From Actinomycetes bacterium (GTDB taxonomy: Bacteria; Actinomycetota; Acidimicrobiia; Acidimicrobiales; Ilumatobacteraceae): a DNA stretch of 64,000 nucleotides. Location of the stretch: positions 1 through 64,000 of the forward strand of contig JANYDH010000083.1 in assembly GCA_025359865.1 (NCBI GenBank), in the 5' to 3' direction. Made by a program: the position numbers and the translations under genes. Of the stretch, positions 16,378 through 35,112 are shown in pieces. The notes under the pieces were generated by a model, which worked only from the letters and a program-made list of their open reading frames with translations, was not told the origin of the DNA and searched no databases. Numbering within the stretch: the first letter of the stretch is position 1; each line of letters begins with the position of its first letter.

Positions 16378-16558
16378 GACAACTTCTGCGGCGCAGCACT
16401 ACAGGCAGAATCTTGTGACGTTTGGCGTTTGGCTGTCATTGGCAGGCTGTCGCACAATGCTGTTTGGTGGTGCGGCGAGTGAGGTTGGCCGTCTGGTCGT
16501 GTTCTCGGCAACGGTGTCATGGTTGTTGCTGAACTCGTGGTTGTGCCGCACAAGTCAG

Positions 16559-16767
16559 CTCAACATCGGCGACTAACAGCCCGCCCGCCGGGCCTACCGG
16601 CTGTTGCGGTGCCAAGTCGCGTCGAACTATCGGCGCTGGCGACATGAAAGTCGACGCGATCCTGCCCGCACAGCCGTCGCGGGAGGAGTCGCGTCGAACT
16701 ATCGGCGCTGGCGACATGAAAGTCGACGCGATCCTGCCCGCACAGCCGGGACCGGGTACCGCCAACC
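16559..16767 (+). repeat. dispersed hairpin repeat element, copy A (two 72-bp units)
   Basis: Copy A of an element found three times in the window. It has a conserved left flank (16559-16615, containing the inverted repeat GCCCG/CGGGC), then two 45-bp hairpin units at 16616-16660 and 16688-16732, spaced exactly 72 bp apart. Each unit has arms GTCGCGTCGA and TCGACGCGAT. A short right flank (ACCGGGTACCGCCAACC) is shared with the other copies. The left flank aligns with copy C (34461-34517) without gaps. From 16378 to 16558 and from 16768 to 16932 I see no gene. Confidence 0.85.
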
Positions 16768-24956: not shown

Positions 24957-25016
24957 CGAGCGGCTGACACCTGGTGCGTCCAGGCAGAAGTTCCCTGATG
25001 GTGGAGTGCGTTTGGT

Positions 25017-25180
25017 GGTGGGTTGTTGTGAGCAGGCTGTCACGAAATGTGGGTGGGGTTGGCGGCACCGGGCTGTGCGGGGAGGATCGCGTCGACTTTC
25101 ATGTCGCCAGCCCCGATAACTCGACGCGACTCCTCCCACGACGGCTAGGTCCGGCGGGCGGACTGCCAGACGTCAGTCGT
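25017..25180 (-). repeat. dispersed hairpin repeat element, copy B (one unit, inverted)
   Basis: Copy B of the element is in inverse orientation. It has one 45-bp hairpin (25086-25130: ATCGCGTCGA ... TCGACGCGAC on the plus strand). On the minus strand it is preceded by a divergent left flank (CCGCCCGCCGGACCTAG) and followed by the right flank CGCCAACCCCACC, with a GTTGTTGTGAGCAGGCTGTC block that matches copy C at 34820-34863. The boundaries are approximate. Confidence 0.75.
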
Positions 25181-34460: not shown

Positions 34461-34863
34461 CTCAACGTCGGCGACTGACAGCCCGCCCGCCGGGCCTACC
34501 CGCTGTTGCGGTGCCAAGTCGCGTCGAGTTATCGGCGCTGGCGACATGAAAGTCGACGCGATACTCCCCGCTACGCCTTTCTGGCAGGAGTCGCGTCGAG
34601 TTATCGGGGCTGGCGACATGAAAGTCGACGCGATACTCCCCGCTACGCCTTTCTGGCAGGAGTCGCGTCGAGTTATCGGGGCTGGCGACATGAAAGTCGA
34701 CGCGATCCTGCCCGCACAGCCGTCGTGGTCGCTGATCCAGACTTCCACCACGCCCGCCTGTCATACAACGAACGTTCACGCTCCAGCGCGACCGCACGGC
34801 CGGGATCGGGACCGGGTACCGCCAACCCCACCAGCATTTTGCGACAACCTGTTGACAACAACC
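34461..34863 (+). repeat. dispersed hairpin repeat element, copy C (three 72-bp units)
   Basis: This is the longest copy. The left flank (34461-34517) aligns with copy A without gaps. Three hairpin units start at 34518, 34590 and 34662, exactly 72 bp apart, each 45 bp with arms GTCGCGTCGA and TCGACGCGAT. About 90 bp of unmatched sequence follows, then the right flank, including GGTACCGCCAACCCCACC and the block ending GACAACCTGTTGACAACAACC shared with copy B. From 34864 to 35112 I see no gene, only a short unsupported frame near 35021. Confidence 0.85.
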
Positions 34864-35112
34864 CAACGCCAAAGCTCAGCCCTGATGCCCGTCCCGGGCC
34901 ATAGTTGAACTCGCTCCGCTCCGAGCGATCTGACTGCAACGGCCGGGTGGGGTGAGTTGAGTTGGGGAGAAGCAAGCACATTTCCGAGATTCGTCAACCC
35001 AGTTTGACAACCATGGCAAGTGAACATGACGCCGTTGCCGAGTTGATCACCTGGCGTCGCTAGCGCAGGGTTTGCATTCAATCAACTAATGCTGGGATGC
35101 ACTAGTACAGGG

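What the first reader, a model, noticed from the sequence alone, without database searches (positions are those of the whole stretch)
34461..34863. Dispersed hairpin element in 1, 2 and 3 tandem units of 72 bp (copies A, B, C)
The same architecture occurs at 16559-16767 (two units), 25017-25180 (one unit, inverted) and 34461-34863 (three units): a left flank with its own inverted repeat, n exact 72-bp units each holding a 45-bp hairpin (arms GTCGCGTCGA / TCGACGCGAT), and a right flank. Units are nearly identical between loci. Each locus is intergenic, next to decayed genes (A, B) or 5 bp after an orphan DNA methyltransferase (C). No transposase is linked, so this is a non-autonomous or RNA-type repeat. 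Variation in unit number suggests copy-number change in place.
Basis: seen in the sequence. Interest (0 to 1): 0.8.

Follow-up and report, generated by a model that had tools for sequence, protein, structure and literature searches.

The report
Jumping hairpin elements inside other hairpins
This bacterial genome carries over a hundred copies of a short gene-less jumping DNA element, built around one to three tandem hairpins and often sitting in the loop of a second hairpin repeat; it is a new and unusually layered example of a known kind of genomic parasite.

Summary
The 45-bp hairpin occurs six times in the window, as listed, and 131 times in the 4.99-Mb genome (reversed control 0), always at a 72-bp period where tandem. 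It is the core of a larger element of about 300-450 bp with terminal inverted repeats CAGGCTGTCGCA...TGCGACAGCCTG. In 6 of 8 copies with unique flanks an exact 4-bp target-site duplication surrounds the element (0 of 56 cross-pairs). One copy splits an EamA-like gene; deleting the element plus one TCTC rejoins the frame. It is therefore a MITE-like element. At least 22 copies sit in the loop of a second palindrome (M1), which also occurs empty about 80 times. The three window copies are end-truncated relics. Unit number is 1 (49 loci), 2 (33) or 3 (copy C only); C shows a local duplication. The hairpin arms are nearly invariant (3 changes in 2,360 sites versus 141 in 2,950 loop sites). TIR amplification is unique to this genome among 150 of its family (probably Ilumatobacteraceae). 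No RAYT and no transposase with these ends was found. The closest analogue is the pneumococcal BOX element. New variant of a known kind.

The parts
16417..16442 (+). copy A: left half of the target palindrome M1 (GACGTTTGGCGTTTGGCTGTCATTGG)
   Evidence: sequence; M1 family
16443..16454 (+). copy A: left terminal inverted repeat CAGGCTGTCGCA
16455..16615 (+). copy A: left arm of the element
   Evidence: alignment with other copies
16616..16660 (+). copy A: hairpin unit 1
16661..16687 (+). copy A: 27-bp inter-unit spacer, sequence unique to this locus among those read
16688..16732 (+). copy A: hairpin unit 2, identical to unit 1
16733..16767 (+). copy A: right arm, truncated (no right terminal repeat)
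25009..25032 (-). copy B: half-palindrome M1 remnant next to the element's right end
25033..25044 (-). copy B: right terminal inverted repeat, degenerate (CAGGCTGTCACG on + strand)
25045..25085 (-). copy B: right arm, internally deleted
25086..25130 (-). copy B: single hairpin unit
25131..25170 (-). copy B: left arm, truncated; adjoining the unit it carries spacer-like sequence, suggesting loss of a first unit
34461..34517 (+). copy C: left arm, truncated 5 bp after the methyltransferase stop codon
34518..34562 (+). copy C: hairpin unit 1
34563..34589 (+). copy C: spacer 1 (ACTCCCCGCTACGCCTTTCTGGCAGGA), found only in this locus among those read
34590..34634 (+). copy C: hairpin unit 2
34635..34661 (+). 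copy C: spacer 2, identical to spacer 1 (local tandem duplication)
34662..34706 (+). copy C: hairpin unit 3
34707..34839 (+). copy C: right arm
34840..34851 (+). copy C: right terminal inverted repeat TGCGACAACCTG
34852..34881 (+). copy C: right half of the target palindrome M1
34882..34934 (+). copy C: third outer dispersed palindromic layer (CTGATGCCCGTCCCGGGCCATAGTTGAACTCGCTCCGCTCCGAGCGATCTGAC)
   Evidence: similar sequence, reverse-complemented, flanks other copies, e.g. L072
1..20 (-). terminal repeat of a further copy, cut by the contig start

Best explanation
The feature is the core of a non-autonomous transposable element (MITE-like) that has multiplied in this one species, probably of the Ilumatobacteraceae. 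Full copies have 12-bp inverted ends CAGGCTGTCGCA...TGCGACAGCCTG, two self-folding arms and a central array of one to three 45-bp hairpins at 72-bp period. SHOWN: dispersion, the shared ends, 4-bp duplication of the target, one split reading frame that rejoins when the element and one duplication copy are removed, repeated insertion at one position (the TCAA/CCAA loop) of a second dispersed palindrome (M1), existence of many empty M1 sites, unit numbers of 1, 2 or 3. INFERRED: a transposase supplied in trans (DDE type, from the inverted ends and fixed 4-bp duplication) moved it; palindrome apices are favoured targets; unit number changes in place by slippage or recombination between the tandem hairpins; the near-invariant hairpin arms are needed in cis for amplification, as a protein site or extruded hairpin.
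For: 131 copies of the unit in the genome, 0 in reversed control. 157 TIR matches at up to 1 mismatch against 0-3 in 149 other family genomes. Exact 4-bp duplications TTTA, TGTA, TATT, TGGA, TCTC, CCCA in 6 of 8 copies with unique flanks, 0 of 56 cross-pairs, none at 3, 5 or 6 bp. Removing the L067 copy and one TCTC joins two half-frames into a 191-codon frame with an EamA profile match over positions 2-133 of 135, weak at E 6e-4 and below the curated cut-off. M1: 22 filled sites, 15 of them with the 4-bp duplication within 1 mismatch, and about 81 empty hits with loop TCAA/CCAA, control 0. Arms 3/2360 changed sites against 141/2950 in the loop and about 6% elsewhere. Within-locus units more alike than between loci, 1.91 vs 2.37 differences, p about 1e-4 or less in 10,000 shuffles; copy C holds a duplicated private spacer. 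No unit in GTDB genome contigs, IMG/VR, plasmids or phages.
Against: No autonomous partner found: no TIR pair much further apart than the MITE size in the loci read, and transposase families PF01797, PF01609, PF13546, PF13340, PF00665 gave none with these ends. Seven of 22 M1-embedded copies have mismatched duplications. For the M1 subset the exact-match rate (6/22) is little above the cross-pair rate (0.197), so those sites support targeting more than they prove duplication. No orthologous empty site in a relative could be shown. The three window copies each lack one end, so none of them shows a duplication itself.
Confidence: 0.82

Rival explanations
1. REP/BIME-type palindromes moved by a RAYT (Y1 tyrosine transposase) acting on single-stranded DNA.
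For: High copy number, hairpins, tandem and mosaic arrangement, species-restricted amplification.
Against: No Y1 transposase in the 96.6%-complete assembly although the control genomes ring; fixed 4-bp duplication and true TIRs, which REPs are not known to have; no GTAG foot next to the hairpin.
Confidence: 0.05
2. A structured non-coding RNA or regulatory element dispersed for a cellular function (terminator, mRNA stabiliser), with mobility only historical.
For: Very strong folding (z -5.1 for copy A) and almost invariant hairpin arms; 32 of 32 tested copies intergenic by a crude gene caller, which however also missed the split frame at L067.
Against: No covariation, 1 of 140 pairs with a two-sided change; no Rfam family; no preferred gene orientation (<< 9, >> 7, >< 7, <> 6); no unit in 4 congeners; at least one copy splits a reading frame.
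Confidence: 0.1
3. M1 and the inner element are one transposon with long inverted ends; 'empty' M1 palindromes are footprints left by excision rather than target sites.
For: M1 halves flank at least one side of 29 of 37 copies with both ends; empty M1 carries exactly one TCAA or CCAA.
Against: Eight copies have no M1 and six of these show clean duplications in unique DNA; M1 also occurs as a component of unit-free elements and without target duplications of its own.
Confidence: 0.15

Closest known systems
BOX elements of Streptococcus pneumoniae (boxA-boxBn-boxC; PMC3049150)
   Same: Left module, variable number of a tandem module, right module; TIRs and target duplications; 100+ copies; overlapping length range; largely one species or close relatives.
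   Different: No sequence comparison was made, so this is analogy; here a 72-bp period and GC-rich sequence; here many copies lie in the loop of a second palindrome; no IS with similar ends found (ISSpn2 is proposed for BOX).
MITEs such as RUP, NEMIS/Correia, Nezha, ERIC (PMC2229807, PMC3733652)
   Same: Non-coding, inverted ends, target duplication, fold-back structure, mostly intergenic.
   Different: Larger than the sizes given there (<200 bp; 70-300 bp) and modular; 4-bp duplication instead of the common TA; not AT-rich; no donor IS identified.
IS elements that target REP palindromes (IS1397, ISKpn1, IS621, ISRm22; PMC1525189)
   Same: Recurrent insertion into a dispersed palindrome.
   Different: Those encode their transposase; here the inserted element is itself non-coding and palindromic.

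Membership tests
MITE (non-autonomous DNA transposon) | terminal inverted repeats at both ends | tested here: met
   CAGGCTGTCGCA...TGCGACAGCCTG in 37 copies with both ends
MITE (non-autonomous DNA transposon) | target-site duplication of fixed length | tested here: met
   4 bp in 6 of 8 unique-flank copies, 0 of 56 cross-pairs
MITE (non-autonomous DNA transposon) | no coding capacity, short | tested here: met
   244-603 bp between ends; too short for a transposase gene
MITE (non-autonomous DNA transposon) | autonomous element with matching ends in the same host (usual, not required) | tested here: inconclusive
   five transposase families searched in the genome, none bounded by these ends; other families not searched and the assembly is incomplete
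BOX element | A-Bn-C architecture with variable n | tested here: met
   n = 1 (49), 2 (33), 3 (1)
BOX element | sequence homology to pneumococcal boxA/B/C | not tested
   no BOX sequence was compared; the claim is analogy only, not membership
REP / REPIN | GTAG- or CGTC-tagged short palindrome | tested here: not met
   no such tag at a fixed place beside the 45-bp hairpin in the aligned copies
REP / REPIN | associated RAYT (Y1) gene in the genome | tested here: not met
   PF01797 absent
structured RNA family | covariation supporting pairs | tested here: inconclusive
   covariation term positive; 1 of 140 pairs; the copies are closely similar, so the test is weak

The most novel reading that the evidence does not exclude
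The element is moved by a structure-guided transposase that recognises extruded hairpins: the invariant 10-bp arms form its cis site and the 4-nt loop of another palindrome is the target, so that elements nest inside one another and build layered hairpins.
Probability: 0.12. Interest if true: 0.75.

Novelty: new variant of a known kind. Interest (0 to 1): 0.47.

Why it matters
It gives an uncultured actinobacterial lineage a BOX-like modular mobile element, with filled and empty target palindromes in the same genome, so target choice, unit-number change and the role of the invariant arms can be tested directly. It also explains a practical problem: 21 of 83 analysed copies lie at a contig edge, and contigs overlap by exactly 141 bp at such repeats, so these elements contribute to the fragmentation of the assembly.

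Tried and rejected
RAYT/IS200 origin: no PF01797. IS1380-like pair on C116 as donor: ends do not match. IS6-like gene in L269: two weak TIR matches (2 mismatches each), one inside the transposase frame and one outside the gene, treated as chance. Other rve transposases: no TIRs nearby. IS701/IS5-type models PF13546 and PF13340: none. Orthologous empty sites in congeners: the EamA-like gene is absent from them and the region upstream of the CoA-transferase is not syntenic. Viral, plasmid and phage collections: no match. TSD of the M1 palindrome itself: none at any offset tested. Hybrid copies with mismatched flanks (e.g. L086) were treated as possible assembly chimeras.

Full report
Observation. 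The same unit occurs 131 times in the 4.99-Mb, 219-contig assembly with up to three mismatches, and never in the reversed control. Contigs overlap by exactly 141 bp at some copies, so contig-end copies are partly counted twice; the true number of units is somewhat lower, still above one hundred by estimate.

Anatomy. I read 83 loci. The hairpin is the core of a larger element. Full copies begin with CAGGCTGTCGCA and end with TGCGACAGCCTG. Between the ends are a left arm of about 170 bp, one to three hairpins at exactly 72-bp period, and a right arm of about 155 bp with a GGGATC-type microsatellite. Other short tandem repeats in the arms (8 bp, 11 bp, 18 bp) also vary in number between copies. 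The consensus of two-unit copies folds to -228 kcal/mol; copy A folds better than its shuffles with z = -5.1. About a third of the exact TIR matches lie in elements in which I saw no 45-bp unit and which carry other strong hairpins.

Window copies. A keeps the left end (16443) and lost the right. B, inverted, keeps a degenerate right end (25033) and lost the left. C keeps the right end (34851) and starts 5 bp after the methyltransferase stop. They are relics, so target duplications had to be read elsewhere.

Mobility. Eight copies have unique DNA on both sides. Six show an exact 4-bp direct repeat at the ends and a seventh differs by one base; no cross-pair of 56 matches, and no copy matches at 3, 5 or 6 bp. 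In L067 the element splits an open frame: joining the flanks and keeping one TCTC gives 191 codons with an EamA profile match over positions 2-133 of 135, E 6e-4, below the curated cut-off. I take this as one disrupted gene with moderate confidence.

Insertion into a second palindrome. Twenty-two copies with both ends lie inside palindrome M1 (TTTGGCGTTGGGTTGTTG-TCAA-TGACAGCCCAACGCCAAA), always at the loop; 15 have the 4-bp repeat within one mismatch. M1 with an undivided loop occurs 81 times, a few palindromes being counted on both strands, against 0 in the control. Within this subset the exact-match rate is only slightly above cross-pairs because the loops are alike, so what is shown is the fixed position. 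M1 itself has no target duplication.

Unit number and arms. Units per locus are 1 (49), 2 (33) or 3 (1). Two units of one locus are more alike than units of different loci (1.91 against 2.37 differences; p about 1e-4 or less in 10,000 shuffles), and copy C holds a private 27-bp spacer twice. This supports change in place on top of inherited arrays. The arms GTCGCGTCGA and TCGACGCGAT changed at 3 of 2,360 sites while the 25-bp loop changed at 141 of 2,950 and the rest of the element at about 6%. Copies were found with the unit pattern, which favours conserved units; nine units found through the TIRs instead show 2 arm changes against 22 loop changes. Much of the loop variation is shared between copies, so the contrast reflects several lineages that kept the same arms. 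There is no covariation that would speak for an RNA function, but the copies are too alike for a strong test.

Range. The TIR pattern occurs 157 times here and 0-3 times in each of 149 other genomes of the family, including four congeners; the 61-bp unit is absent from the congeners. GTDB contigs, IMG/VR, plasmid and phage collections have no match. The relatives found by a neighbouring protein (Ilumatobacter and Ilumatobacteraceae metagenome assemblies among the best) place the genome in or near Ilumatobacteraceae.

Donor. Five transposase families were sought in the genome and none is bounded by these ends. The genome is 96.6% complete and other families were not searched, so a donor may have been missed, lost, or supplied from outside.

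Comparison. Pneumococcal BOX elements have the same logic: A-Bn-C, TIRs, target duplications, 125 copies of 67-637 bp (PMC3049150). Insertion into palindromes is known for IS elements that target REPs (PMC1525189). The combination seen here, a non-coding palindromic element recurrently placed in the loop of another dispersed palindrome with a variable hairpin array, I did not find described in the papers searched; that library is partial.

Noticed in passing
L122, L124, L127, L128, L140, L049:10866-11693, L110:2142-2993: Unit-free elements with the same ends carry other long near-perfect hairpins (CGACACGTGGAGGCACGTG...; GGGCGAAGTGCAGAACGAGATGGCA...), and some composites hold the unit-bearing element as a further layer.
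   Followed up: partly
genome-wide, e.g. window:1-141, L053/L073/L096, L058/L100/L101: Contigs overlap by exactly 141 bp at element copies, the mark of a k=141 assembly broken at repeats; hybrids such as L086 may be chimeric.
   Followed up: partly
L114, L115 (contig C116): Two related transposase genes (about 76% DNA identity over 1.5 kb, IS1380-like by my reading), unrelated to the element.
   Followed up: partly
L151:17573-17769 and L154:184-380: The same small hairpin element with 99.5% identical flanks on two contigs, in opposite orientation.
   Followed up: no
window:32963-34456: N6-methyltransferase ORF ending 5 bp before truncated copy C; its left part overlaps an opposite-strand ORF with a PRK/uridine kinase domain.
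   Followed up: no
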